Positions 6,782-41,491 of a stretch of 50,562 nucleotides of DNA are shown piece by piece. The notes under the pieces are model-generated. The model worked only from the letters and a program-made list of their open reading frames with translations, was not told the origin of the DNA and made no database searches. The stretch is from Actinomycetota bacterium (GTDB lineage: Bacteria; Actinomycetota; Thermoleophilia; Solirubrobacterales; Solirubrobacteraceae), in contig JADDQZ010000013.1 in the NCBI GenBank assembly GCA_016781085.1, forward strand, positions 1 through 50,562, written 5' to 3'. The first letter of the stretch is position 1. Each line of letters starts with the position of its first letter. The position numbers were made by a program, and so were the translations under genes.

Positions 6782-9919
<3,138 letters not shown>

Positions 9920-9929
9920 GAGACGGCCG

Positions 9930-9935
9930 ATTCTA
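9930..9935 (-). promoter_or_regulatory. putative -10 box for ileS
   Basis: TAGAAT on the minus strand, 10 nt before the GTG start at 9919, consistent with a leaderless or nearly leaderless transcript. Confidence 0.4.
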
Positions 9936-10003
9936 GGCGGCCTCAGGAAGCCGGCCGAGGGGGCGGCTTTTCAGCTGTGGCGCCCGTTCTGCCGCTGCCG
10001 GTC

Positions 10004-10024
10004 CCCGCACGGCGCCCGTGCGGG
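10004..10024. repeat. perfect inverted repeat between divergent ileS and a small membrane protein gene
   Basis: CCCGCACGG (10004-10012) and CCGTGCGGG (10016-10024) form a 9-bp stem with a 3-nt gap. The right arm ends 9 nt before the TAGCCT box of the next gene, so it could be an operator or a bidirectional structural element. No T-run follows, so it is not a normal terminator. Confidence 0.5.
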
Positions 10025-10033
10025 TAGCCTGGG

Positions 10034-10039
10034 TAGCCT
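10034..10039 (+). promoter_or_regulatory. putative -10 box (leaderless type)
   Basis: TAGCCT exactly 6 nt before the ATG at 10046. The nonamer GGGTAGCCT occurs twice in a row here (from 10022 and 10031). Confidence 0.4.
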
Positions 10040-10045
10040 GATCGC

Positions 10046-10507
10046 ATGGGCCGGGCCCTGCTCGCCGTCATAACGCTGTTGCTTTTGTGCATCGTCGGTC
10101 TCGGGCTGTCGGTCTACTTCACGCGCGGCGAGAAGACCTACGCGGTCGACAACCTGCTGGCCGAGGAGTTGGGGCGCGACGTGGCCACGGCAGAAGACCA
10201 AGGACGGCCCGTGGTGCTCGCCGACATCACGAAGTTCGAGTGGGACCAAGTGCTGGTGGTCGCCAAGGGAACGCCACGCGAGCGTATCGAGCGGGCGTTG
10301 GGACGCGACTTTCAGGGGCATATCAACTACGACGTCGAATCGGCCGAGCTGTTCGTCTTCGTCCGCGATGGCGAGCTCGTGCGCTACGCCGACTATCGCG
10401 GCCGCGGGCGGTTCACGGGCGTGAAAAAGCCGATCGACAAGCTGACGCCCGCGACGGCCGTGTTCGAAGTGCGCAACATGGTGGCGCGCCCGGCCAAGTC
10501 GCGCTGA
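10046..10507 (+). CDS. uncharacterised membrane-anchored protein
   Basis: 153 aa. I do not recognise the family. Residues 5-25 form one hydrophobic segment (LLAVITLLLLCIVGLGLSVY), then a soluble, presumably extracytoplasmic domain of about 125 residues with mixed charge and no cysteine motif. There is no clear signal-peptidase site, so a single-pass anchor is more likely than secretion. The ATG is preceded by a TAGCCT box and not by a ribosome-binding site. It stands alone between ileS and the convergent MATE gene; its 3' end is part of a duplicated segment. Confidence 0.7.
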   Translation: MGRALLAVITLLLLCIVGLGLSVYFTRGEKTYAVDNLLAEELGRDVATAEDQGRPVVLADITKFEWDQVLVVAKGTPRERIERALGRDFQGHINYDVESAELFVFVRDGELVRYADYRGRGRFTGVKKPIDKLTPATAVFEVRNMVARPAKSR

Positions 10508-10571
10508 CGCCTATTTCAGGCTTCTCGCGTTCGGCCGAGTTGCGCTGAGGGCCTTTTTCAGGCTTCTCGCG
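10491..10571. repeat. tandem duplication spanning both stop codons of two convergent genes
   Basis: Copy 1 (10491-10529) and copy 2 (10532-10571) are near-identical 39-40-mers about 41 nt apart. Each contains GCGCTGA, the last codon and stop of the plus-strand gene, and TTTCAGGCTTCTCGCG, the stop and last codons of the minus-strand MATE gene. The real plus-strand stop is in copy 1 and the real minus-strand stop in copy 2. Confidence 0.75.
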
Positions 10572-11880
10572 GCCGCGCCCCCGTCGACGCCCACGCATTC
10601 GACGCAAAGCGCGCGGCACAGGTGATCAATCGCACTCCGATCAGCGCGACCAGTCCCCACCAGACGCCTTCGATTCCCCAGCCTTGCTGGAGCGTCAGTA
10701 GCGACAGCGCGATGAAGGTGACCGCCGCAGCCAGCATCCCCCACATCAGATACCGCGTGTCGCCCGCGCCGATGAGGATGCCGTCCAGGGCGAACACCGC
10801 CGCGTTGGCCGGCATGGACAAGGCGAACAGCAGCCAAATCGCATCGGCCCGCTCGATCACCGCTTGATCGGAAGTAAACAAGCGCGGCAGCACGTCGCCG
10901 AGAGCAAGCAGGAACGCCCCGAAGATCGTCCCGGCGAGCACGGACCATCCGATCATGCGCATCGCGGCTTCGCGGGCTGCGCCTGGATCGCCGGCTCCGA
11001 GTAGCCGGCCGACCATCACCTGGCCGGCGATGGCGATCGCGTCTAGGACGAGCGCCATGAAGATGAAGAGGTTGAAGACGATCTGGTGTGCGCTCACCGA
11101 AGCGTCTCCCACACGCCCGAGCACCGCCGTGGCGATCAGGAAGGAGCCGACCAGCGCGGTGGTGCGCACCGCGATCTCGCTGCCGACGCGCATCAGCGGA
11201 ACGATCTGGCGCAGACGCGGCTTGCGCCAGCCGCCGCGTGCCTGGATGCGGGCGAAGGCCAGCCCCATGCCCACTTGGGCGAGCACCGTTCCCCAGGCCG
11301 AGCCCTCGAGTCCCCAACCGAAGCCGTAGACGAACAAAACTTCGAGGAGCGCGTTCATCACTTGCGCGACGACGAGGATGATCAGCGGCGTCCGCAGATC
11401 GGAGATACCCCGCAAGTAGCCCTGAGCCGACGCGGCGATCATGAACGCCGGTGCTCCGAGCGCCGAGATCCGTAGGTACGTCGCGGCCTCATCAGCCACC
11501 TCGCCCCGCGCGCCCATGAGCGCCACCGCCTGGTCAGCCAGCGCGATCAAAGCGACGAGCAGCACCATCCCGATCCCCAAGCCGAGCCAGAACGCCTGCA
11601 TTCCCAGCCGCGTAGCGCGCTCGTGCTCGCCGGCGCCATGCAGGCGGGCGACTTGCGCGGTGGTCCCGTAAGTCAGGAAATTGAAGACCGTGAACGTCGT
11701 GGTCAAGACGGTTCCCGCCCGCGCCAGCGCACTTAGTTGCATGGTCCCGAGGTGGCCGACGATCGCCGTGTCCACGAGGACGTAAAGCGGTTCAGAAGCG
11801 AGCGCGCCGAGTGCCGGGATCGCGAGGCGGAGGATCTCGCGGTCATGGGGAGAGCGCATGGCGCGATTAGGCGAGCGCAT
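10558..11880 (-). CDS. MATE family multidrug/metabolite exporter (DinF-like)
   Basis: About 440 aa with twelve hydrophobic segments in two similar halves, the MATE fold; such proteins expel drugs or metabolites in exchange for Na+ or H+. The opening after MRSPHDREILRLAIPALGAL and the segment YVLVDTAIVGHLGT match the DinF subgroup of MATE proteins. The frame runs on to 12018, but that part is Arg-rich and overlaps the divergent hydrolase. ATG 11880 gives the usual length and has TAGAGT 10 nt upstream; ATG 11859 is the alternative. The substrate cannot be predicted. Confidence 0.9.
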   Translation of the reverse strand: MRSPNRAMRSPHDREILRLAIPALGALASEPLYVLVDTAIVGHLGTMQLSALARAGTVLTTTFTVFNFLTYGTTAQVARLHGAGEHERATRLGMQAFWLGLGIGMVLLVALIALADQAVALMGARGEVADEAATYLRISALGAPAFMIAASAQGYLRGISDLRTPLIILVVAQVMNALLEVLFVYGFGWGLEGSAWGTVLAQVGMGLAFARIQARGGWRKPRLRQIVPLMRVGSEIAVRTTALVGSFLIATAVLGRVGDASVSAHQIVFNLFIFMALVLDAIAIAGQVMVGRLLGAGDPGAAREAAMRMIGWSVLAGTIFGAFLLALGDVLPRLFTSDQAVIERADAIWLLFALSMPANAAVFALDGILIGAGDTRYLMWGMLAAAVTFIALSLLTLQQGWGIEGVWWGLVALIGVRLITCAARFASNAWASTGARPREA

Positions 11881-12836: not shown

Positions 12837-14174
12837 ATGAGCGTGCAAGACCAGTCGCGCGAACTATGGGGCGGGGAGACCCGCAAGGCGGTCGAGAACT
12901 TCCCGATCTCGGGGGAGCGAGTGCCGGTCTCGGTGGTGCACTGGTTGGGTCGCATAAAGGGTGCGGCGGCGCGCGCCAACGCCGATCTGGGGCTGCTTGA
13001 TGCGGGCGTCGCCGACCGGATCGCCAAGGCGGCCGACGAGGTCGCCGCCGGCACGCACGATGATCAGTTCCCGATCGATGTCTTCCAGACCGGCTCGGGG
13101 ACGTCGTCGAACATGAACGCCAACGAGGTGCTGGCCTCCCTGGCGGGCGAAGGCGTGCATCCCAACGACCACGTGAACATGGGACAGTCGTCCAACGACG
13201 TGTTCCCGAGCGCAGTCCACCTCGCGGCGCTCGACGAGGCGACAAATCGGCTGCTGCCTGCGCTCGGCGCCCTGGAGCGCTCCTTGGCAGTGAAAGCCGA
13301 CGAATACGCCGACATCGTCAAAGCCGGCCGCACTCATTTGATGGACGCAGTGCCGGTGACGCTCGGACAGGAATTCGCCGGCTACGCGGCGCAGATCCGC
13401 CTCGGCGCTCGTCGCATATCCAACGCTCTTCCGCAGGTAGCGCAGATCCCCCTCGGCGGCACCGCGACCGGCACCGGGCTGAACACTCACCCCGATTTCG
13501 CGCGGCGGGTGCGCGAGCTGCTGTCTTCAAACAGCCGCCTTGAGATCCGCGCGCCCGAAGACCCGTTCGAGGCGCAAGGCAACCGCGACGCGCTGGTCGA
13601 GTTGTCGGGCGCGCTGCGCACACTCGCCGTCTCGCTGACCAAGATCGCCAACGACCTCGCGATGATGGGCTCCGGGCCGCGTGCCGGCCTGGGGGAGCTC
13701 TACCTGCCGGAGCTGCAGAAGGGCTCCTCGATCATGCCCGGCAAGGTCAATCCGGTCATCCCGGAAGTCGTGTTGCAGGTCGCTGCTCAGGTGATCGGCA
13801 ACGACACGGCGATCACCCTCGGCGGCATGCAGGGGCAGTTCGAGCTCAACGTGCGCGTGCCGCTGATGGCCCGCAACCTCCTCCAGTCGATCCATCTACT
13901 GACGACCTCCAGCGACGCCCTTCGCGAGAAGTGCGTTGATGGCGTGCAACCGAACTTCGAAGGCTGTGAACGGTCGGCGGAGTCGACGCTCGCGGTCGCG
14001 ACCGCGCTGAACCCCTACATCGGCTACGACCGGGCAGCGGCGATCGTCAAGGACGCGGCGGGTTCCGGGCGGACTCTGCGCGAGGTCGCACGCGAGCACG
14101 GCGTTGACGAGGAGACCCTCGACAAGGCGCTTGACCTGCGCAAGATGGCTGCCGGGTCTTCGGCGCAGGGCTGA
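12837..14174 (+). CDS. fumC: class II fumarate hydratase
   Basis: Fumarase C of 445 aa, the iron-independent homotetramer that converts fumarate to L-malate in the TCA cycle. The superfamily signature GSSIMPGKVNPVIPE begins near residue 295; TGSGTSSNMNANEV (~83) and GQSSNDVFPSA (~117) form the other conserved active-site regions. ATG 12837 has a GGAAG ribosome-binding site. A strong hairpin follows the stop by 10 nt, so it is probably a single-gene transcript. Aspartate ammonia-lyase is the main alternative, but the motif context favours fumarase. Confidence 0.94.
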   Translation: MSVQDQSRELWGGETRKAVENFPISGERVPVSVVHWLGRIKGAAARANADLGLLDAGVADRIAKAADEVAAGTHDDQFPIDVFQTGSGTSSNMNANEVLASLAGEGVHPNDHVNMGQSSNDVFPSAVHLAALDEATNRLLPALGALERSLAVKADEYADIVKAGRTHLMDAVPVTLGQEFAGYAAQIRLGARRISNALPQVAQIPLGGTATGTGLNTHPDFARRVRELLSSNSRLEIRAPEDPFEAQGNRDALVELSGALRTLAVSLTKIANDLAMMGSGPRAGLGELYLPELQKGSSIMPGKVNPVIPEVVLQVAAQVIGNDTAITLGGMQGQFELNVRVPLMARNLLQSIHLLTTSSDALREKCVDGVQPNFEGCERSAESTLAVATALNPYIGYDRAAAIVKDAAGSGRTLREVAREHGVDEETLDKALDLRKMAAGSSAQG

Positions 14175-14183
14175 GTGTTGGGT

Positions 14184-14221
14184 GCCGTGGCGGTCGGCGG
14201 TTCGCCGCCGACCGCCACGGC
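14184..14221 (+). terminator. strong hairpin terminator after fumC
   Basis: A perfect 17-bp stem (14184-14200 with 14205-14221) closed by a TTCG loop, followed by TTT. It starts 10 nt past the fumC stop. The T-tract is short, so termination may be partly Rho-dependent or the structure may protect the mRNA end; it could also serve the convergent gene at 14401. Confidence 0.8.
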
Positions 14222-33234: not shown

Positions 33235-34035
33235 TCAGCCGTTGACGCCTGGCAGGTAGCGCACTTTGGCCGGAAGAACTGGCACTACCAAGCGCCGCAG
33301 GTACTCAGCCCCGCCGTGCAGCGCCATCGCACGGAGGGGATCCCACGAGAACCCGTATTGCCGGCGAATCTCCTTCGGCAGCAGGCCGATGGTGGTCTGG
33401 TTGATTGCCTCCACCAATCCGCGCGACCACAGCGGCGCGGGCGGATTGAGGACGATGTCGATCGACAGTTCTCGCGCCTGCGGCGTGACGTAGAGCTTCC
33501 CGCTCGCGAGCATGTCGCTCATGTAGGCGTCGAAGTCGAGGATGTCCGCGGGCATGTCAGAGTCGGCGAGGCCGAACAAGCGGCCGACGACCTTGTACTG
33601 CTGCCAGTAGTCGTCGCGCTCCGCCTCAGACAACGGCGTGACGTACTTCGAGTAGACGACCAGGGCCGAATCGACCAGCGTGGCCAGCACCCACAGCAAC
33701 AACTGGGGGTCGTCGGCGGCGTAGGGGGTTCCGGCCGGAAACGGGCCGGCATCTTCTTCGAGCGTGCCGCGCACTTTGGAATGCATCGCACGGACGCGGC
33801 GCGTCAGGCGCTCGGCGACTTCACGTTCGCCGAAGTAGATGGAGTGCATCGCCAGCGCGGTGCGCTCGAGGCGCCGGTACGGGTCTGACAGCGCGTTGGT
33901 GTGCGCGTAGAAGCCGGCGAACGCCAGCGGATGCGCCGCCTGCATCAGCAGCGCGCGGCCGCCGGAGATGGCAACGGAGCGCTCGCGGTTGACGCGGCGC
34001 AGGATCGAGTCGTCGGTGAACAGTTGCGTGCCCAT
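33235..34035 (-). CDS. DUF2236/MpaB-family oxygenase (second paralogue)
   Basis: 266 aa. Shares with the protein at 31670 the block [23 protein letters not shown] (~24-46), with the conserved His, and [21 protein letters not shown]. The C-terminal region [16 protein letters not shown] matches LGLLPVSLREQYGYEW of the other, so they are true paralogues. The ATG at 34035 has TCTAAT 6 nt upstream and no Shine-Dalgarno; the longer frame to 34155 runs into the divergent siroheme gene. Confidence 0.85.
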
Positions 34036-34041
34036 GTTCTG

Positions 34042-34067
34042 ATTAGAAGTACGCGTCTGGATACCCT
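34042..34067. promoter_or_regulatory. divergent leaderless-type -10 boxes
   Basis: TCTAAT on the minus strand (34042-34047) is 6 nt from the MpaB-type ATG, and TACCCT on the plus strand (34062-34067) is 10 nt from the ATG at 34078. The whole gap is 42 bp, so both promoters must overlap. Confidence 0.4.
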
Positions 34068-34077
34068 CTGGATCGTC

Positions 34078-34821
34078 ATGCCCGCACAGGCTTACGCCGG
34101 CAAGGAATGTGTCTGCCAGTTTCGCAAGGGGATCTGCGACCAGACATGCGTGCAAGGCATGCTGGAAACCCCCTTCTACATCGCTTGCCTGAAGCTGACC
34201 GGTCGCCGCTGCGTGGTCGTCGGCGGCGGTGAGATCGGGCTGGAGAAGATAGAAGGCCTTCTCGCCTGCGACGGGCGCGTGGTCCTGATCTCGCCGGATG
34301 CGCTGCCCCAGTTGCAGGAACTGGCGGCTGAAGGTTCGATCGAGTGGTTCCGTCGTGAATACGAGACCGGCGACCTGGAAGGCACGTTCATCGCCATCGC
34401 CGCCACCGACGACACGGACATCAACATCCGCGTCTACGACGACGCGGAAAAGCGCGCGATGCTCGTGAACGTCGTTGACGTCCCGCCGCTGTGCAACTTC
34501 ATCCTGCCGGCGATCCTGCGCACCGGTCCGCTCGCCATCGCGATTTCTACCGCCGGTGCTTCACCCGCCCTGGCCAAGCGGATCAAGAGCCAGATCGCCG
34601 AGGAATACGGCGAGCCGTACGCGCGGCTAGCCGTGCTGCTCAACGAGGTCCGCGGGTGGGCGAAGGGAACGCTGCCCACTTATCAAGACCGGAAGGCGTT
34701 CTTCGAGGGAATCGTCAACGGAAAACCGGATCCGATCGAGCTCCTACGGCACGGCGATGAAGCGGGCGTGCGCGAGTTGATTTCAGCCGCGCAAGCCGAG
34801 CACGAGCCGGCTGCGGCCTAG
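34078..34821 (+). CDS. precorrin-2 dehydrogenase (siroheme synthase N-domain) with Cys-rich N-terminal extension
   Basis: 247 aa. The NAD-binding Rossmann part is [27 protein letters not shown] holds the conserved catalytic Asp; [18 protein letters not shown] is the family block. It oxidises precorrin-2 to sirohydrochlorin and may also insert iron (CysG-N/Met8/SirC). Most relatives start near the equivalent of MLETPFYIA (ATG 34159). Here 27 more residues precede it with four Cys ([15 protein letters not shown]), suggesting a metal or Fe-S site. It supplies siroheme from the uroporphyrinogen methylated by the fusion enzyme at 42366. Confidence 0.87.
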
Positions 34822-34909: not shown

Positions 34910-37081
34910 GTGCCCAGGATTCGCCCTAACCGCTCCGGCGCCGCCTCCCGCCGTCGCTTTTCACTGAAGATCAAGATCGCGGTGCTCGTCGGCGTCGCCG
35001 TTGCCGTCAGTGTGGCGGTTCCATCGCTGCTGGCGCTCAGCACGATCCTTGCGAACGTGGAGGAGATCAAGGAACGGCAAGGGCGTACTTCGCGCAGCGC
35101 GGCGGAGATGCTCGCTGCCGGTGCTCGTGCCGAGATGGACGAAGTCAGAGGACGGCTGGAAGCGGCAGGATCGGCGGCCGGCGCACGCCCGGCGCTCGCA
35201 CACGTTGGCAAAGTCGACAAGACCAGGATCGTCGCCCTCGATTCGACCGGCGCCGTGGTCGACGGCGGGCCGGCCGGCAAGACGCTGCAGCTGGCCTCCC
35301 AGCTGCCCGAAGGCGAGTCGAACTCCGACTTTGCGCTTGTCGCCGCCGCCGACCTCGAGATCTTGGGCCTCGCCGAAACGGCACAACTCGAAGTCAAGAC
35401 GTCGGAGCTCGGCCGTCCGGTCGACTTCTCAGCTCTCGACGCCGGACTGGCGATGGTCTCGAGCGCGCCGACGTCCGACGGCGGACGCCTGGTCGCCGTC
35501 CGCTTGCTGGCCGGCGACTACAGCCTCGTCGACGCCAACCAGCGCCTGATGGGCAAGGGCGCCTACAACACCATCTTCCAGGGGGACGTCCGCGTCGCCA
35601 CCACCGTGCGCAAGGAGGGCAAGCGCGCCGTCGGCACGACCGTCAGCGAAAAGGTCCACGACGCGGTGTTCGAAGGCGCAGGCTCCTACACGGGCGAAGC
35701 CCAGGTGGTCGACCAGACGGTGGTCAGTCACTACGAAGCGATGCTCGACGGCGACGGCAACAAGATCGGCATGTGGTACTCGGGTTATTCGAAGGCCGGA
35801 GTGGAAGCGCAAGCGGTCCGCACGCTCTGGGGCTTCGCCGTCTGCGCGCTGCTTCTGCTGGTCGCGGGCACCGGCGCCGGCGTCCTCTTCGCTCGTCGTC
35901 TGGGCAAGCGCCTGGACCGTGCCGTCGACGGCCTGCAGTCGCTCAGCGACCATGACACCGCTGCGCTTGAGGCGGCGCTCGAGGCAGCGGCGCGCGGGGA
36001 CTTCACCCGTACCGTCACGCCTGTGACGGAGCCGCTCGAAGACTCCATCGACGACGAGATCGGCGACGTGGTGCGAGCCGTCGACCAGGTGCGCCGCCAC
36101 ACCGCTTCCTCCGTCGAGGCCTACAACGAGACGCGCGAGCAGACCGCAGGGTTGATCGGGCAGGTGAGCGCGACGGCCGGCACGGTTTCCGCTTCTTCGG
36201 TCGAAGTCGCGCAGGCGTCGGATGAGACCGGTCGCGCGATCGACGAGATCGCCACGGCCATGACCGAAGTGGCGCACGGAGCCGAGCAGCAGGTGCGGAT
36301 GGTCGAGCACACGAGAGAGCTCAGCGCGGAAGTCGCCGCGGCCACTGAGACCTCTGCCGTAAATACGGCGGAAACCGCCGAAGTCGCCAAGGCTGCCCGC
36401 AAGCTCGCCGACGAGGGTGCTCGCGCGGTCGCCGACGCCTCCGACGCCATGACGGGAGTCCGCGAGGCCTCGCAGGAGGTCACCGACGTCATGCGGGAGC
36501 TGGGTGCCAAGAGCGAGCAGATCGACGGCATCGTCCAGACGATCACCGGGATCGCGGAGCAGACCAACCTGTTGGCGCTCAACGCCGCGATCGAAGCGGC
36601 CCGTGCCGGCGAGCAGGGCCGCGGGTTCGCAGTCGTGGCCGAGGAGGTCCGCAAGCTCGCCGAGGAGAGCCAGGCGGCTGCGGGCTCGATCGCGGGCCTG
36701 ATCGGAGAGATCCAGACCGAGACCCAGCGCGCGATGTCGACCGTCGAATCGGGTGCCGTACGCACCGAGCACGGCGTGGTGACGGTTGAGGAAGCGCGGG
36801 CTTCGTTCGTCCGCATCGGGCACTCCGTCGAGGACATGTCCTCCCGGATCGCCGACATCTCCGCCGGCGTGTTGCGCATCGCGGAGAGCTCGCGGCAGGT
36901 GCAAGGCGACATCGGGCAGGTCACGGACGTGGCCGAGCGCTCTTCCGCAGCTTCTGAGCAGGTCTCCGCCTCCACGCAGCAGACGTCGGCTTCGACGCAG
37001 CAGATCGCGGCGTCGGCACAGGAGCTGTCCCGTTCAGCCGAAGAGCTCCAGCAGCTCATCGGCCGCTTCCAGTTCGTGTGA
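34910..37081 (+). CDS. methyl-accepting chemotaxis protein
   Basis: 723 aa. Membrane helix 1 at ~20-46; a periplasmic single-Cache-like sensor at ~50-300, with [11 protein letters not shown] and the repeated [18 protein letters not shown] type strands; helix 2 at ~303-330; a HAMP-like linker; and a long coiled-coil signalling domain whose tip is [20 protein letters not shown] (~555-575). It would relay ligand binding to CheA/CheW, but no che genes are in the window. GTG start at 34910. The end is Ser/Thr/Gln-rich and has no CheR pentapeptide. Confidence 0.92.
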
Positions 37082-37165: not shown

Positions 37166-37204
37166 AGCCTACTCGCGGCGAGCTGGACTCGGCGCGAGTA
37201 GGCT
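37166..37204. repeat. 12-bp perfect inverted repeat overlapping the mogA-like gene promoter
   Basis: AGCCTACTCGCG (37166-37177) and CGCGAGTAGGCT (37193-37204); inside them CGAG/CTCG (37179-37182, 37188-37191) pair around CTGGA. The last six bases of the right arm are TAGGCT, a -10-like box 6 nt before the ATC at 37211. It could be an operator on the promoter, or an RNA hairpin ending the chemoreceptor transcript. Confidence 0.7.
37199..37204 (+). promoter_or_regulatory. putative -10 box of the mogA-like gene
   Basis: TAGGCT, 6 nt before the presumed ATC start at 37211, the same hexamer and nearly the same spacing as before the exonuclease gene at 20478. Confidence 0.35.
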
Positions 37205-37210
37205 GCGGGC

Positions 37211-37702
37211 ATCCGTACCGCGATCCTCACCGTCTCGACGTCGGTCTCCCGCCGACAGGCCGATGACCTCTCCGGGCCCCGCCTCGCGGCGCTCGCCGAG
37301 AGCGCCGGCTGCGTGGTCGAAGCCATGGAAGTCGTTCCCGACGACTACGCGCTGATCGAGGATCGCCTGCACCACTACGTCGACGACGGCTTCGTTTTCA
37401 TCTTCACCACGGGCGGGACCGGCTTGACGCCCGACGACGTGACGCCCGAAGCCACGCGCGCGGTGATCGAGCGTGATGCGCCGGGCTTCGCCGAAGCGAT
37501 GCGCCGCGAGGGGCAGCGCCACACCGTTCACGGCATCCTCACGCGCGGTGTCGCCGGGACTGCCGGGCGCACGCTGATCGTCAACTTCCCGGGCAGCCCT
37601 CGCGCCGTCGAGCAGCTCTTTCCGGTCCTGGCTCCCACGCTGGCCCACGTCGCTCAAACTCTGCGCGGCCAGTCGGACCATGGACGCCAAGGCGGCCGCT
37701 GA
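37211..37702 (+). CDS. MogA/MoaB-family molybdopterin adenylyltransferase, apparent ATC start
   Basis: About 163 aa if read from ATC 37211: IRTAILTVSTSVSRRQADD, then DGFVFIFTTGGTGLTPDDVTPEAT and VNFPGSPRAVEQL. These are the MogA/MoaB core motifs (TxS, TTGGTG, PGSP); the family adenylylates molybdopterin before metal insertion. In this frame a stop lies at 37199 and no ATG, GTG, TTG or CTG occurs until GTG 37313, which would remove the first strand and the substrate loop. Either ATC is the start, or the gene is damaged at its 5' end. It overlaps ccmA by 23 nt. Confidence 0.75.
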   Translation: MRTAILTVSTSVSRRQADDLSGPRLAALAESAGCVVEAMEVVPDDYALIEDRLHHYVDDGFVFIFTTGGTGLTPDDVTPEATRAVIERDAPGFAEAMRREGQRHTVHGILTRGVAGTAGRTLIVNFPGSPRAVEQLFPVLAPTLAHVAQTLRGQSDHGRQGGR

Positions 37703-38378
37703 CAGCGCGATCGAGCTCGACGGGCTTGGTCGTCGCTACGGCGAGCGCGACGTTTTGACCGGGGTGACGTTATCTGTGCCGATGGGCTCGACCCTCGCCG
37801 TCTTCGGCTCAAACGGCGCGGGCAAGACGACGCTGTTGCGGATACTGGCCACGCTGTTGCGGCCGCACGCCGGCCGAGTTCGGGTGCTGGGCTCGGAGCT
37901 ACCCAAGGAGAGCTGGGCGCTGCGCGGGCGAGTCGGATTGCTGGCCCACGAGCCGATGCTCTACCGCGAGCTGACTGCGCGCGAGAACCTGCTCTTCCAC
38001 GCCCGCCTGCACGGCGTAGGAGAGGAGCGGGTGTCGGCTTTGCTCGAGCGCGTCGGCCTCGGGCGGCGGGCCGAAGAAGCGGTGGCCACGCTGTCGCGCG
38101 GGATGACTCAGCGCGTGGCCATCTGCCGCGTCGCCCTGCCCGAGCCGGAGTTGTTGTTGCTTGACGAGCCGCTGGCCAATCTCGACCCGGGCGCTTCCGC
38201 GGCGATCGAGCCCCTGATCGGGCGCGAGACAGGTTCGACGCGCGTAGTGGTTTCCCACGACATCGACCAGGGCCTTTCCGAAGCCGATCATGTGCTCGGG
38301 TTGCGCGACGGCAAGGCGGCCGTCCTCGCGCCGGCGGCTGAAGTCACGCGGGCGCAGATCGCGGAGCTGTACCGATGA
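37680..38378 (+). CDS. ccmA: heme ABC exporter, ATP-binding protein CcmA
   Basis: 232 aa. Walker A GSNGAGKTTLL (~43), signature LSRGMTQRVA (~140), Walker B LLLLDEPLANLD (~158), and switch His in VVVSHD. Order with ccmB, ccmC and ccmD identifies it as the ATPase of the heme-handling complex of cytochrome c maturation. On its own it could be any small ABC ATPase. It overlaps the mogA-like gene and leads the operon. Confidence 0.88.
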   Translation: MDAKAAADSAIELDGLGRRYGERDVLTGVTLSVPMGSTLAVFGSNGAGKTTLLRILATLLRPHAGRVRVLGSELPKESWALRGRVGLLAHEPMLYRELTARENLLFHARLHGVGEERVSALLERVGLGRRAEEAVATLSRGMTQRVAICRVALPEPELLLLDEPLANLDPGASAAIEPLIGRETGSTRVVVSHDIDQGLSEADHVLGLRDGKAAVLAPAAEVTRAQIAELYR

Positions 38379-38439
38379 GGAGCCGGGAACGCGTCCCCGC
38401 TGCCCCAGCGACGCGGACGGCGTTACGGGAGCTAGGTCG

Positions 38440-39114
38440 GTGAGAGGAGCGGTCGTGGCCTTGATTCGCAAGGACTTCCGCTTGGAGCTGCGCACGCGGG
38501 AGTCGGTGCCGGCGATGCTGCTGTTCTCGATCAGCACTTTCGTGCTCTTTCACTTCGGGCTTGATCGCGACGCACTGTCAGGCGACCTCGCCGCGGGCGT
38601 GCTGTGGGTGACGCTGCTGTTCGCCGCCGTCCTCGGCATCAACCGACTGTTCGTCTCTGAACGCGAAGAAGGCGGCTTCGACGGCTTCCTGCTCGCGCCC
38701 GTCGACCGTACTTCGATGCTGGTCGCCAAGGCCACCGTGCTCTTCACCTTCTTGGTGGTCGTCGAACTCGGCGTCGTACCGGCGTTCACGCTGCTCTTGC
38801 TCGACCCGCCGCTGTGGCCGGCGCTGCCAGAACTACTTGTCGTCCTGCTGTTGGCCGATGCCGGCATCGCAGTCGTCGGAACGCTGGTGGCAGCTCTTGC
38901 CGTGCAGACGCGGGCACGTGAGCTGATCGGTCCGCTCCTGACTCTTCCCCTGTTGGTTCCGCTGTTGACGGCAGCTGCCCAGGCCACCGCACCGCTGTTC
39001 GACGAAGCTGGCGCGCTGCCTGCTCCGGGAAGCTGGCTGGGAGTGCTCGGCCTCTATGATGTGGTCTTCGGGCTGGTCGCGTACGCGGTGTTCGACTTCC
39101 TCCTGGAAGACTGA
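38440..39114 (+). CDS. ccmB: heme exporter protein CcmB
   Basis: 224 aa with six hydrophobic helices. It begins VRGAVVALIRKDFRLELRTR and contains FVSEREEGGFDGFLLAPVDR, the typical CcmB loop after helix 2. It is the membrane partner of CcmA. GTG 38440 gives the family N-terminus with a GGGAG-like site upstream. A 61-bp gap separates it from ccmA. Confidence 0.88.
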   Translation: MRGAVVALIRKDFRLELRTRESVPAMLLFSISTFVLFHFGLDRDALSGDLAAGVLWVTLLFAAVLGINRLFVSEREEGGFDGFLLAPVDRTSMLVAKATVLFTFLVVVELGVVPAFTLLLLDPPLWPALPELLVVLLLADAGIAVVGTLVAALAVQTRARELIGPLLTLPLLVPLLTAAAQATAPLFDEAGALPAPGSWLGVLGLYDVVFGLVAYAVFDFLLED

Positions 39115-39180: not shown

Positions 39181-39945
39181 GTGAAGAAGGAGCCGCGTAA
39201 GTTGCATACACCGTCGTTTGGCCGGGGATTGAGGGCTCTCTCCCTGCTGTCGGTGGTGCTGCTCATCGGCGCTTTCTCGATGGTGTTCTTCTACGCGCCC
39301 AATGACGCCGACCAGGGCTTCATCCAGAAGATCTTCTACGTCCACGTCCCAGTGGCGATCGTCGCCCTGCTGGGGTTCATCGCCGGTGGAATCTACGGCG
39401 CTCTGTACCTTTGGCGCGGCCGTCGTGCCGACGACCTGCGCTCTTATGTCGCGATCCATCAGGCAGTGATCCTCGGCGTCGCCGCGCTGGTCACCGGCTC
39501 GATCTGGGCGCGCGCCTCATGGGGCCATTGGTGGGTCTGGGACGAGCCGACGCTGGTGTCGTTTCTGGTCGTCTTCCTGCTGTTCGCCTGTTATTGGCCG
39601 CTGCGCTTCTCGCTCGAAGACCCGGAGCGCCAGGCGCGCTTCGCTGCCGTCTTCGCGGTCATCGCGGGGGCCTTCGTGCCGATCAATTTCATGGCCGTCC
39701 GCCTGGCCCAGTCCTACGCACCGCATCCGAAGGTGTTCATGGCCACGGGCGGAGGCATGCCGACCTCGATGTTCGTCACCTTCCTGCTCTGCCTGCTGGC
39801 GGTCGCCGTCCTTGCCGTGACGCTGTGGAAGTACGAGCTCACTTCCAAGCACGCGACGATGCGGGTGCGGCAACTCAAGCGCCGGCTCAGCGCAGATTCA
39901 TCGGGCACGACCGTCGGCCGTAGCGCCGCGCCACAGCAAATCTGA
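39181..39945 (+). CDS. ccmC: heme-handling membrane protein CcmC/CcsA type
   Basis: 254 aa, six helices. The tryptophan-rich heme motif is WGHWWVWDEPTL (~110-122), and conserved His residues flank it (YVHVPVA at ~55, APHPKVF at ~178). CcmC presents heme to the periplasmic chaperone. Length and WWD context fit CcmC better than the longer CcsA. GTG start at 39181. Its stop overlaps the next ATG by 1 nt (TGATG). Confidence 0.9.
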   Translation: MKKEPRKLHTPSFGRGLRALSLLSVVLLIGAFSMVFFYAPNDADQGFIQKIFYVHVPVAIVALLGFIAGGIYGALYLWRGRRADDLRSYVAIHQAVILGVAALVTGSIWARASWGHWWVWDEPTLVSFLVVFLLFACYWPLRFSLEDPERQARFAAVFAVIAGAFVPINFMAVRLAQSYAPHPKVFMATGGGMPTSMFVTFLLCLLAVAVLAVTLWKYELTSKHATMRVRQLKRRLSADSSGTTVGRSAAPQQI

Positions 39946-40163
39946 TGATGCCCGCGCTACCGCTCGACCAGGCCGGCCCGTACGTCGCCGGCGCTTATCT
40001 CGTCTTCTTGGCGCTCGTCCTGATCTACGTCGCAATCATGGCCTCGCGGCTAGCTCGTATCGATCGCGAACTGGGGGAGCTGACGGAGCTCGTGGAGCGT
40101 CAGCAAGCCGGTGACGCGGCCGCGGTGCCGGTTGCCGAACCCTCACGCGAGCCCGTGGCATGA
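39945..40163 (+). CDS. ccmD: CcmD-like small membrane protein
   Basis: 72 aa: one N-terminal helix (AGAYLVFLALVLIYVAIMASRL) and a charged tail with RIDRELGELTELVE. This is the layout of CcmD, which stabilises the CcmABC-CcmE complex. Sequence alone is weakly informative; the position after ccmC supports it. Overlaps ccmC by 1 nt and hemA by 4 nt. Confidence 0.75.
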   Translation: MMPALPLDQAGPYVAGAYLVFLALVLIYVAIMASRLARIDRELGELTELVERQQAGDAAAVPVAEPSREPVA

Positions 40164-41491
40164 CGGAGCTGCTGGCGCTCGGCGCTTCGCACAAGACCGC
40201 TCCTCTCGCCCTGCGCGAGCGCCTGGCTGTGAGTGACGCCCAGTCACAGCGGCTGCTGCGTGAGCTCGTCGAGCACGACGCGATTTCCGAAGCCGTGGTC
40301 ATCTCGACTTGCAACCGCATCGAGCTCTACCTCGTCGTGAGCGATGCGGTGGAAGCCGAAAGTGCGGTTCTGGCGATGCTTGCGCGCCGCGCCGGCATTC
40401 GCCCGACCGAGCTGGTCGACCACATCTACTCGTTGCGCAACTGCGACGCCGCACGGCACCTCTTCCGCGTGACGGCCGGGCTTGACTCGATGGTCGTGGG
40501 TGAAGCCGAGATCCAGGGGCAGGTCAAGCGCTTCTACGAGATGGCGCTCGAGCATCAGACGGCGGGGCCGCTGACGAACCGGCTGTTCCGCGGAGCGCTC
40601 GCCGCCGGCAAGCGCGCGCGGACCGAGACGCGGATCTCCGTCGGTCACGCCAGCGTGGCCAGTGTCGCCGTCGACTTGGCCCGCGAGACGCTGGTGGAGC
40701 TCGAAGACCGCCACGTTCTGATCGTCGGTGCCGGTGAGACGGCCGAGCTCACCGCTCGCGCCTTGTACGACCGCGGCGTCACAAAGATGTTCGTCGCCAA
40801 CCGCCACCGCGAGCGCGCCATTGCGCTGGCCGAGCGGTTCGGCGGCTCGACTATTTCCTTTGACTCGTTGCTGACGCAGCTCGAGCGCGCCGACATCGTT
40901 TTGAGCTCCACCGCGTCGCCGCACTACTTGATCGACGCCGTCGAACTCGGGGAAGTCGTGCAAAAGCGGCGCGGGCGTCCGCTCCTGCTGATCGATTTGG
41001 CGGTTCCGCGCGACATCGATCCCGATTGCGTCCAGCTCGACGGCGTGTCGCTTTACGACATGGACGGGCTTCAGGCCCAAGTCGATTCCCACAAGCTCGT
41101 CCGCCGCGCCGAGGCTCGCAAAGCCGAAGGCCTCATCGAAGAAGAGATCCAGTCGTTCGCCGGGTGGCTCGGGTCACTGGAAGTACTGCCGACGATCGCC
41201 GCACTGCGCCAGCACGCCGCGGACGTCGCCCAAGGCGTCCTCGCGGACAACGCCAACCGCTGGGAATCGCTGACGGAAAATGACGACAAGCGGCTCACCG
41301 CGGTCGCCGACACGATTGTCAAGCGCCTGCTGCACGAGCCGACTGCGCGGCTGCGGCAACTCGATGCCGACCACCGTCACGCCCGACTCCAATTGCTCCG
41401 AGAGCTGTTCGGGCTCGACGACGTGGTCGCCGAAGAGAGCACGGAGCGCCCGAGTGCGGAAGTGCGTTCCCTCCGCCCGCGCGGGTCTTGA
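40160..41491 (+). CDS. hemA: glutamyl-tRNA reductase
   Basis: 443 aa, first enzyme of the C5 tetrapyrrole route, reducing Glu-tRNA to glutamate-1-semialdehyde. The catalytic Cys is in STCNRIELY (~49-57); GEAEIQGQVK and the NADPH Rossmann motif IVGAGETAELTARAL (~190) follow; a C-terminal dimerisation helix domain ends the protein. Starts with ATGA overlap to ccmD and ends with TTGA overlap to hemC, so heme synthesis and cytochrome maturation are translated together. Confidence 0.95.
   Translation: MTELLALGASHKTAPLALRERLAVSDAQSQRLLRELVEHDAISEAVVISTCNRIELYLVVSDAVEAESAVLAMLARRAGIRPTELVDHIYSLRNCDAARHLFRVTAGLDSMVVGEAEIQGQVKRFYEMALEHQTAGPLTNRLFRGALAAGKRARTETRISVGHASVASVAVDLARETLVELEDRHVLIVGAGETAELTARALYDRGVTKMFVANRHRERAIALAERFGGSTISFDSLLTQLERADIVLSSTASPHYLIDAVELGEVVQKRRGRPLLLIDLAVPRDIDPDCVQLDGVSLYDMDGLQAQVDSHKLVRRAEARKAEGLIEEEIQSFAGWLGSLEVLPTIAALRQHAADVAQGVLADNANRWESLTENDDKRLTAVADTIVKRLLHEPTARLRQLDADHRHARLQLLRELFGLDDVVAEESTERPSAEVRSLRPRGS

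What the first reader, a model, noticed from the sequence alone, without database searches (positions are those of the whole stretch)
37166..37702. MogA-like gene with no normal start codon: apparent ATC start behind a -10 box inside a 12-bp inverted repeat
Between the in-frame stop at 37199 and GTG 37313 there is no ATG, GTG, TTG or CTG, yet the family N-terminus (TAILTVSTS, SRRQADD) is encoded from ATC 37211. TAGGCT sits 6 nt before ATC, the leaderless spacing seen at several other genes here, and is the right arm of a perfect inverted repeat. ATC starts are very rare. A non-AUG leaderless gene with an operator over its -10 box would be notable for a cofactor gene heading a ccm-hem operon.
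Basis: partly seen in the sequence, partly recalled or inferred. Interest (0 to 1): 0.6.

Follow-up and report, generated by a model that had tools for sequence, protein, structure and literature searches.

The report
Conserved AUC/AUU start on leaderless mogA
A molybdenum-cofactor gene lacks any normal start codon and apparently begins with ATC right where its messenger RNA should begin; the same oddity (ATC or ATT) is kept in all seven sampled genomes of the related soil bacterium Solirubrobacter, so it is real and at odds with the reported rule that such mRNAs need AUG or GUG.

Summary
In detail: in the mogA frame, TAG 37199 is followed by GCT GCG GGC ATC, and no ATG, GTG, TTG or CTG occurs before GTG 37313. 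It is neither a sequencing error nor a pseudogene. All seven Solirubrobacter genomes found also have ATC or ATT at exactly this codon, 6-8 nt behind a TANNNT box, with no usable NTG. Other genera of the family use ATG, GTG or TTG there or nearby. Codons 2-34 evolve as coding sequence. The codon is kept although the upstream gene differs (mcp, met8, subtilase, divergent aldo-keto reductase), which argues against reinitiation. The initiator tRNA is ordinary (CAU). A second gene, ymdB, has ATC in six of seven Solirubrobacter and is divergent from its neighbour. Best explanation: leaderless mRNAs starting with AUC/AUU, decoded by fMet-tRNA. Leaderlessness is inferred from promoter spacing; no RNA or protein data exist. 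The inverted repeat is real (17-bp arms, one mismatch) but seen only in this genome; it more likely terminates mcp than serves as an operator. The surprise is the combination: conserved AUH starts were known behind strong Shine-Dalgarno motifs, whereas mycobacterial leaderless mRNAs required AUG/GUG.

The parts
37211..37702 (+). mogA/moaB-like molybdopterin adenylyltransferase CDS, 163 aa, read from ATC
   Evidence: PF00994 3.9e-31; PDB relatives Cnx1G, gephyrin G, MoaB, Mog align from query residue 1-5 onward
37211..37213 (+). ATC start codon (proposed; also the proposed +1 of the mRNA)
   Evidence: ATC/ATT at the same codon in all seven Solirubrobacter genomes; NTG there or nearby in other genera
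37199..37204 (+). TAGGCT, -10-like box, 6 nt before ATC; its TAG is also the in-frame stop
   Evidence: TANNNT at spacing 6-8 in 7 of 7 distinct clade sequences, none in six control windows
37166..37204 (+). inverted repeat / hairpin, arms 37166-37182 and 37188-37204, 16 of 17 pairs, 5-nt loop; probable mcp terminator overlapping the mogA promoter
   Evidence: not seen upstream of mogA in relatives
34910..37081 (+). methyl-accepting chemotaxis protein gene lying between met8 and mogA only in this genome among those compared
   Evidence: PF00015 1.2e-44; synteny
33901..34821 (+). met8/cysG-type siroheme gene (longest ORF; true start lies further in), the direct neighbour of mogA in four Solirubrobacter genomes
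   Evidence: PF13241, PF14824, PF10414
37680..38378 (+). CcmA-like ABC ATPase gene overlapping the end of mogA
   Evidence: PF00005; TIGR01189 1.4e-36 but below its cut-off
38290..39114 (+). ccmB (longest ORF)
   Evidence: PF03379 1.2e-25
39181..39945 (+). ccmC/ccsB-type cytochrome c assembly gene
   Evidence: PF01578 2.1e-23
40160..41491 (+). hemA, glutamyl-tRNA reductase
   Evidence: TIGR01035 1.6e-121, above cut-off

Best explanation
mogA is transcribed from its own promoter with TAGGCT as the -10 box, so that the mRNA begins at or next to A37211. The ribosome takes the 5'-terminal AUC as start codon, read by the ordinary formyl-methionine initiator tRNA (anticodon CAU) with a mismatch in the third position, without Shine-Dalgarno pairing. 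The AUC/AUU start probably arose in a common ancestor of this genus and Solirubrobacter and has been kept, probably because low output of this cofactor enzyme is enough or wanted. The neighbouring 39-nt hairpin is a private feature of this genome and most likely ends transcription of the inserted mcp gene. Shown by sequence: no NTG start, conservation of ATC/ATT, coding N-terminus, -10 spacing, changing upstream neighbours, ordinary tRNA set. Inferred: the transcription start, initiation at AUC, Met as first residue, low output, terminator role of the hairpin.
For: ATC or ATT at the same codon in the window and all seven Solirubrobacter genomes, with no usable ATG/GTG/TTG nearby. Codons 2-34 diverge mainly at third positions (within Solirubrobacter 0.073, 0.069, 0.343), as does the rest of the gene. 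TANNNT 6-8 nt upstream in 7 of 7 distinct clade sequences and 5-10 nt upstream in 20 of 36 other relatives, none in the clade's control windows. No AUH-specific initiator tRNA in Solirubrobacter G012. The upstream gene differs: mcp 130 nt away (window), met8, subtilase, and in G163 a divergent aldo-keto reductase, which leaves nothing to reinitiate from. Second case: ymdB has ATC in six of seven Solirubrobacter where the window genome, S. soli and G009 have ATG/GTG; codons 2-17 diverge 0.075, 0.033, 0.383; the neighbour is divergent. No other compared gene of the cluster lacks an NTG start.
Against: No RNA 5' end or protein N-terminus has been measured in any of these organisms. In M. smegmatis a selection found ATG or GTG necessary at a leaderless start, while ATT worked only in a leadered position with a Shine-Dalgarno sequence (PMC4633059). 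No good -35 box is seen in the window (one search finds no sigma-70 match). The grouping of the window gene with Solirubrobacter has only moderate support (80/82), so a single origin is not proven. For ymdB, G032 and G165 have a CTG two codons upstream, G163 a GTG three codons upstream that overlaps its -10 box, and G162 has no clear -10 box.
Confidence: 0.7

Rival explanations
1. AUC is the start, but on a longer mRNA: ribosomes that finish the upstream gene reinitiate at the nearby AUC, or the AUC is used on a leadered transcript.
For: In G012, G032, G164, G165 (met8) and G162 (subtilase) the upstream gene's TAG stop lies about 12-17 nt before the ATC/ATT.
Against: In the window the upstream stop is 130 nt away, behind a hairpin of about -43 kcal/mol; in G163 the upstream gene is divergent. 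No Shine-Dalgarno motif precedes the clade's starts. ymdB is also divergent from its neighbour.
Confidence: 0.15
2. Translation starts inside the gene (GTG codon 35 or the conserved ATG codon 39) and the preceding region is not translated.
For: ATG at codon 39 is present in all seven distinct clade sequences.
Against: Codons 2-34 are under purifying selection much as in the rest of the gene; they encode the conserved N-terminus that aligns with solved Mog/MoaB/Cnx1G structures, and relatives start with ATG/GTG at codon 1.
Confidence: 0.06
3. Start further upstream by readthrough of TAG 37199 or by frameshift.
For: In G032 the met8 stop is in frame with mogA.
Against: In G012 met8 is out of frame; in the window the short frame upstream of TAG shows no homology and no start; in G163 the upstream frame lies antisense to an aldo-keto reductase.
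Confidence: 0.03
4. Assembly error or pseudogene in the window genome.
For: The window is from a draft genome, 89% complete.
Against: The same ATC/ATT appears in seven further assemblies, with the reading frame intact and conserved.
Confidence: 0.01
5. The inverted repeat is an operator: a repressor bound over the promoter controls mogA and the ccm genes. (Separate question from the start codon; compatible with the best explanation.)
For: It spans the place of both promoter boxes and is far beyond chance.
Against: Not seen upstream of mogA in relatives, no further exact copy of its arm in the genome, and the only other hairpin of this size lies right behind fumC.
Confidence: 0.25

Closest known systems
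Leaderless genes of Actinobacteria (TANNNT about 12 nt before the start; PMC3160421; mycobacteria, PMC4633059)
   Same: TANNNT at the same distance, no Shine-Dalgarno sequence, start codon at the expected 5' end.
   Different: Known leaderless starts are AUG or GUG; in an M. smegmatis selection ATG/GTG at +1 was necessary. Here AUC or AUU.
Conserved AUU/AUA starts of Staphylococcus cvfC1, ccpN and citZ (PMC13009471); E. coli pcnB and infC AUU
   Same: A near-cognate AUH start kept across a genus, with reduced output; third-position mismatch with fMet-tRNA.
   Different: The staphylococcal sites rely on extended Shine-Dalgarno motifs; here none is present and the context is leaderless.
MogA/MoaB molybdopterin adenylyltransferase (Cnx1G, gephyrin G, MoaB, Mog in PDB)
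   Same: Whole-length homology including the N-terminus, TTGGTG and NFPGSP motifs.
   Different: Only the start codon and the genomic place (after met8/mcp, before ccm-hem) differ.

Membership tests
MogA/MoaB family (PF00994) | MoCF_biosynth domain over its full length | tested here: met
   residues 4-146 match profile 1-144 of 144, 108 bits against a cut-off of 26.6
MogA/MoaB family (PF00994) | score above an NCBIfam equivalog cut-off for MogA or MoaB | tested here: not met
   only the domain model TIGR00177 passes (112.5 against 85.35); PRK09417 and TIGR02667 stay below cut-off, so the subfamily is open
Leaderless gene | -10 box ending 6-10 nt before the start codon | tested here: met
   TAGGCT, 6 nt; 7 of 7 distinct clade sequences at 6-8 nt
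Leaderless gene | transcript 5' end at the start codon | not testable with these tools
   no RNA data found for Solirubrobacter
Leaderless gene | AUG or GUG at +1 (rule from M. smegmatis) | tested here: not met
   ATC/ATT in all eight genomes; rule from PMC4633059
Non-canonical AUH start gene (infC, pcnB, cvfC1 type) | conserved AUU/AUA/AUC start without an NTG alternative | tested here: met
Non-canonical AUH start gene (infC, pcnB, cvfC1 type) | strong Shine-Dalgarno motif before the codon | tested here: not met
   none in the printed upstream sequences of the clade
Altered initiator tRNA | an initiator tRNA with anticodon GAU | tested here: not met
   G012: one initiator with CAU, one ordinary tRNA-Ile GAT
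Intrinsic terminator | GC-rich hairpin behind a gene followed by a T run | tested here: inconclusive
   hairpin present about 85 nt behind mcp, no T run

The most novel reading that the evidence does not exclude
In the Solirubrobacter lineage leaderless initiation is set by position at the mRNA's 5' end and accepts AUC/AUU, and a small class of genes (mogA, ymdB) keeps these codons as a built-in brake or regulator, contrary to the AUG/GUG requirement found in mycobacteria.
Probability: 0.4. Interest if true: 0.75.

Novelty: new variant of a known kind. Interest (0 to 1): 0.62.

Why it matters
Leaderless mRNAs are thought to depend on the start codon itself, and AUG or GUG was found necessary in the best-studied actinobacterium. 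Two genes whose AUC/AUU starts are conserved across a genus in a leaderless setting would mean that this rule is not general and would give a natural system for asking what the ribosome reads at a bare 5' end. Practically, gene finders that allow only NTG starts would miss or truncate such proteins.

Tried and rejected
Sequencing error and pseudogene: rejected by relatives. Special initiator tRNA: none found. Reinitiation: disfavoured for the window and G163 by gene arrangement. Other copies of the repeat: no further exact copy of the arm; one-mismatch hits are no more frequent than the reversed control. A survey for other genes without an NTG start in Solirubrobacter: the first version timed out; the pairwise versions gave many false flags from antisense frames and conserved upstream overlaps. 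The multi-genome version (190 groups) left mogA as the only convincing group in which two or more genomes lack an NTG; the enlarged leaderless search again gave mogA and ymdB. A cytidylate-kinase-like gene with a conserved ACG was set aside because four species have an NTG or CTG two codons upstream. Two rows (809-2629, 8538-10760) are artefacts of my text filter and were ignored. G044's ATC has a GTG ten codons upstream and is not counted.

Full report
What is there. The mogA frame has an in-frame TAG at 37199, then GCT GCG GGC, then ATC at 37211; the first ATG, GTG, TTG or CTG after the stop is GTG 37313, codon 35. Read from ATC the product is a full-length MogA/MoaB protein (PF00994, 3.9e-31) that aligns from its first residues with solved Cnx1G, gephyrin, MoaB and Mog structures. 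It overlaps a CcmA-like gene and is followed by ccmB, ccmC, hemA and hemC.

Conservation. I searched 61 and then 146 genomes and one genome per species in GTDB and read the codon aligned with ATC 37211. In all seven genomes of one genus it is ATC or ATT, again with no usable NTG. In the other genera the same codon, or one close by, is ATG, GTG or TTG. A tree of 43 MogA proteins puts the window gene next to Solirubrobacter with moderate support (80/82); the third base switches between C and T inside the group but is never G. Sequencing error and decay are thereby excluded.

The N-terminus is translated. Within Solirubrobacter, codons 2-34 differ at codon positions 1, 2 and 3 in 7.3%, 6.9% and 34.3% of comparisons; between the window and Solirubrobacter in 17.7%, 12.1% and 42.4%. 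The rest of the gene shows the same pattern. Translation must therefore begin within the few codons between the stop and codon 2, at least in the window and in G032, where the in-frame TAG is only four codons before codon 1.

Leaderless setting. In 7 of 7 distinct clade sequences a TANNNT box ends 6-8 nt before the codon, with none in six control windows; 20 of 36 other relatives have one 5-10 nt before the aligned codon. In a sample of 160 genes of Solirubrobacter G012 the same box peaks at 6-10 nt before the start and is rare elsewhere. TANNNT about 12 nt before the start is the published signature of leaderless genes in Actinobacteria (PMC3160421). No Shine-Dalgarno motif precedes the codon. 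The neighbour upstream is mcp in the window (130 nt away), met8 in four genomes, a subtilase in G162 and a divergent aldo-keto reductase in G163. The start codon is thus kept while the upstream gene changes, and in G163 there is no upstream gene on the same strand from which to reinitiate. In several genomes the TAG of the -10 box doubles as the stop codon of the upstream gene.

Not a tRNA matter. A Solirubrobacter genome in four contigs has one initiator tRNA with CAU and an ordinary tRNA-Ile GAT.

A second gene. To see whether mogA is alone I compared more than half a megabase each of G012 and G163, plus parts of three other genomes. Of 190 ortholog groups, mogA was the only convincing one in which two or more genomes lack a nearby NTG. 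A pairwise screen and a search aimed at leaderless spacing added ymdB. In six of seven Solirubrobacter genomes ymdB has ATC where S. soli and G009 have GTG and the window genome ATG. In G012 the arrangement is TAG CTT CTA GGG ATC, the same as in mogA. Its codons 2-17 are conserved as protein, the product passes TIGR00282 and PF13277, and the gene is divergent from its neighbour. Two weaker cases are hemL (ATA in G012, CTG in S. soli, with a Shine-Dalgarno-like AGGAG) and a cytidylate-kinase-like gene (ACG, ambiguous).

The inverted repeat. It is real and larger than reported but is not seen upstream of mogA in the relatives, and its 12-bp arm has no further exact copy in the genome. The only other hairpin of this size in the window sits 10 nt behind fumC. 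I take it to be a terminator of the mcp gene that this genome carries between met8 and mogA; that it overlaps the mogA -10 box could still matter for regulation, but nothing here shows it.

Against what is known. Changes to AUU are extremely rare: 1 of 61,358 ancestral AUG starts and 1 of 5,080 GUG starts in one survey (PMC5622118). Conserved AUU/AUA starts exist in Staphylococcus but rely on extended Shine-Dalgarno motifs (PMC13009471). For leaderless mRNAs an M. smegmatis selection found ATG or GTG at +1 necessary, with ATT working only in a leadered position with a Shine-Dalgarno sequence (PMC4633059). The combination seen here, leaderless context plus conserved AUC/AUU, is what I found no precedent for in the papers searched; that library is only partial. 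The leaderless part and the use of AUC by the ribosome remain inferences until 5' ends and N-termini are measured.

Noticed in passing
L266, L267, L268, L269, L271, L272 (ymdB loci): ymdB has an ATC start in six of seven Solirubrobacter genomes, at leaderless-like spacing in most; GTG in S. soli (L270), ATG in the window genome (L274).
   Followed up: yes
G012 hemL (survey sequence A, strand +, ORF 226140-227487): hemL seems to start with ATA in G012 and CTG in S. soli where others have ATG or GTG; AGGAG lies 8 nt upstream, and a TTG five codons on is an alternative.
   Followed up: partly
L296-L302: A cytidylate-kinase-like gene keeps ACG 6-7 nt behind a TANNNT box in all seven Solirubrobacter, but several genomes carry an NTG or CTG two codons upstream.
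   Followed up: partly
window 14184-14221: Perfect 17-bp hairpin with a 4-nt loop, 10 nt behind the stop of a fumC-like gene (12837-14174), followed by TTT: a likely terminator.
   Followed up: partly
window 34910-37081: An mcp (chemotaxis receptor) gene separates met8 from mogA only here; other genomes have different genes at this place (subtilase, aldo-keto reductase) or none, so it looks like a repeated insertion point.
   Followed up: partly
L008, L009, L039, L041 upstream of mogA: The TAG stop codon of met8 forms the first half of the mogA -10 box (TAGGCT or TAGGGT).
   Followed up: no
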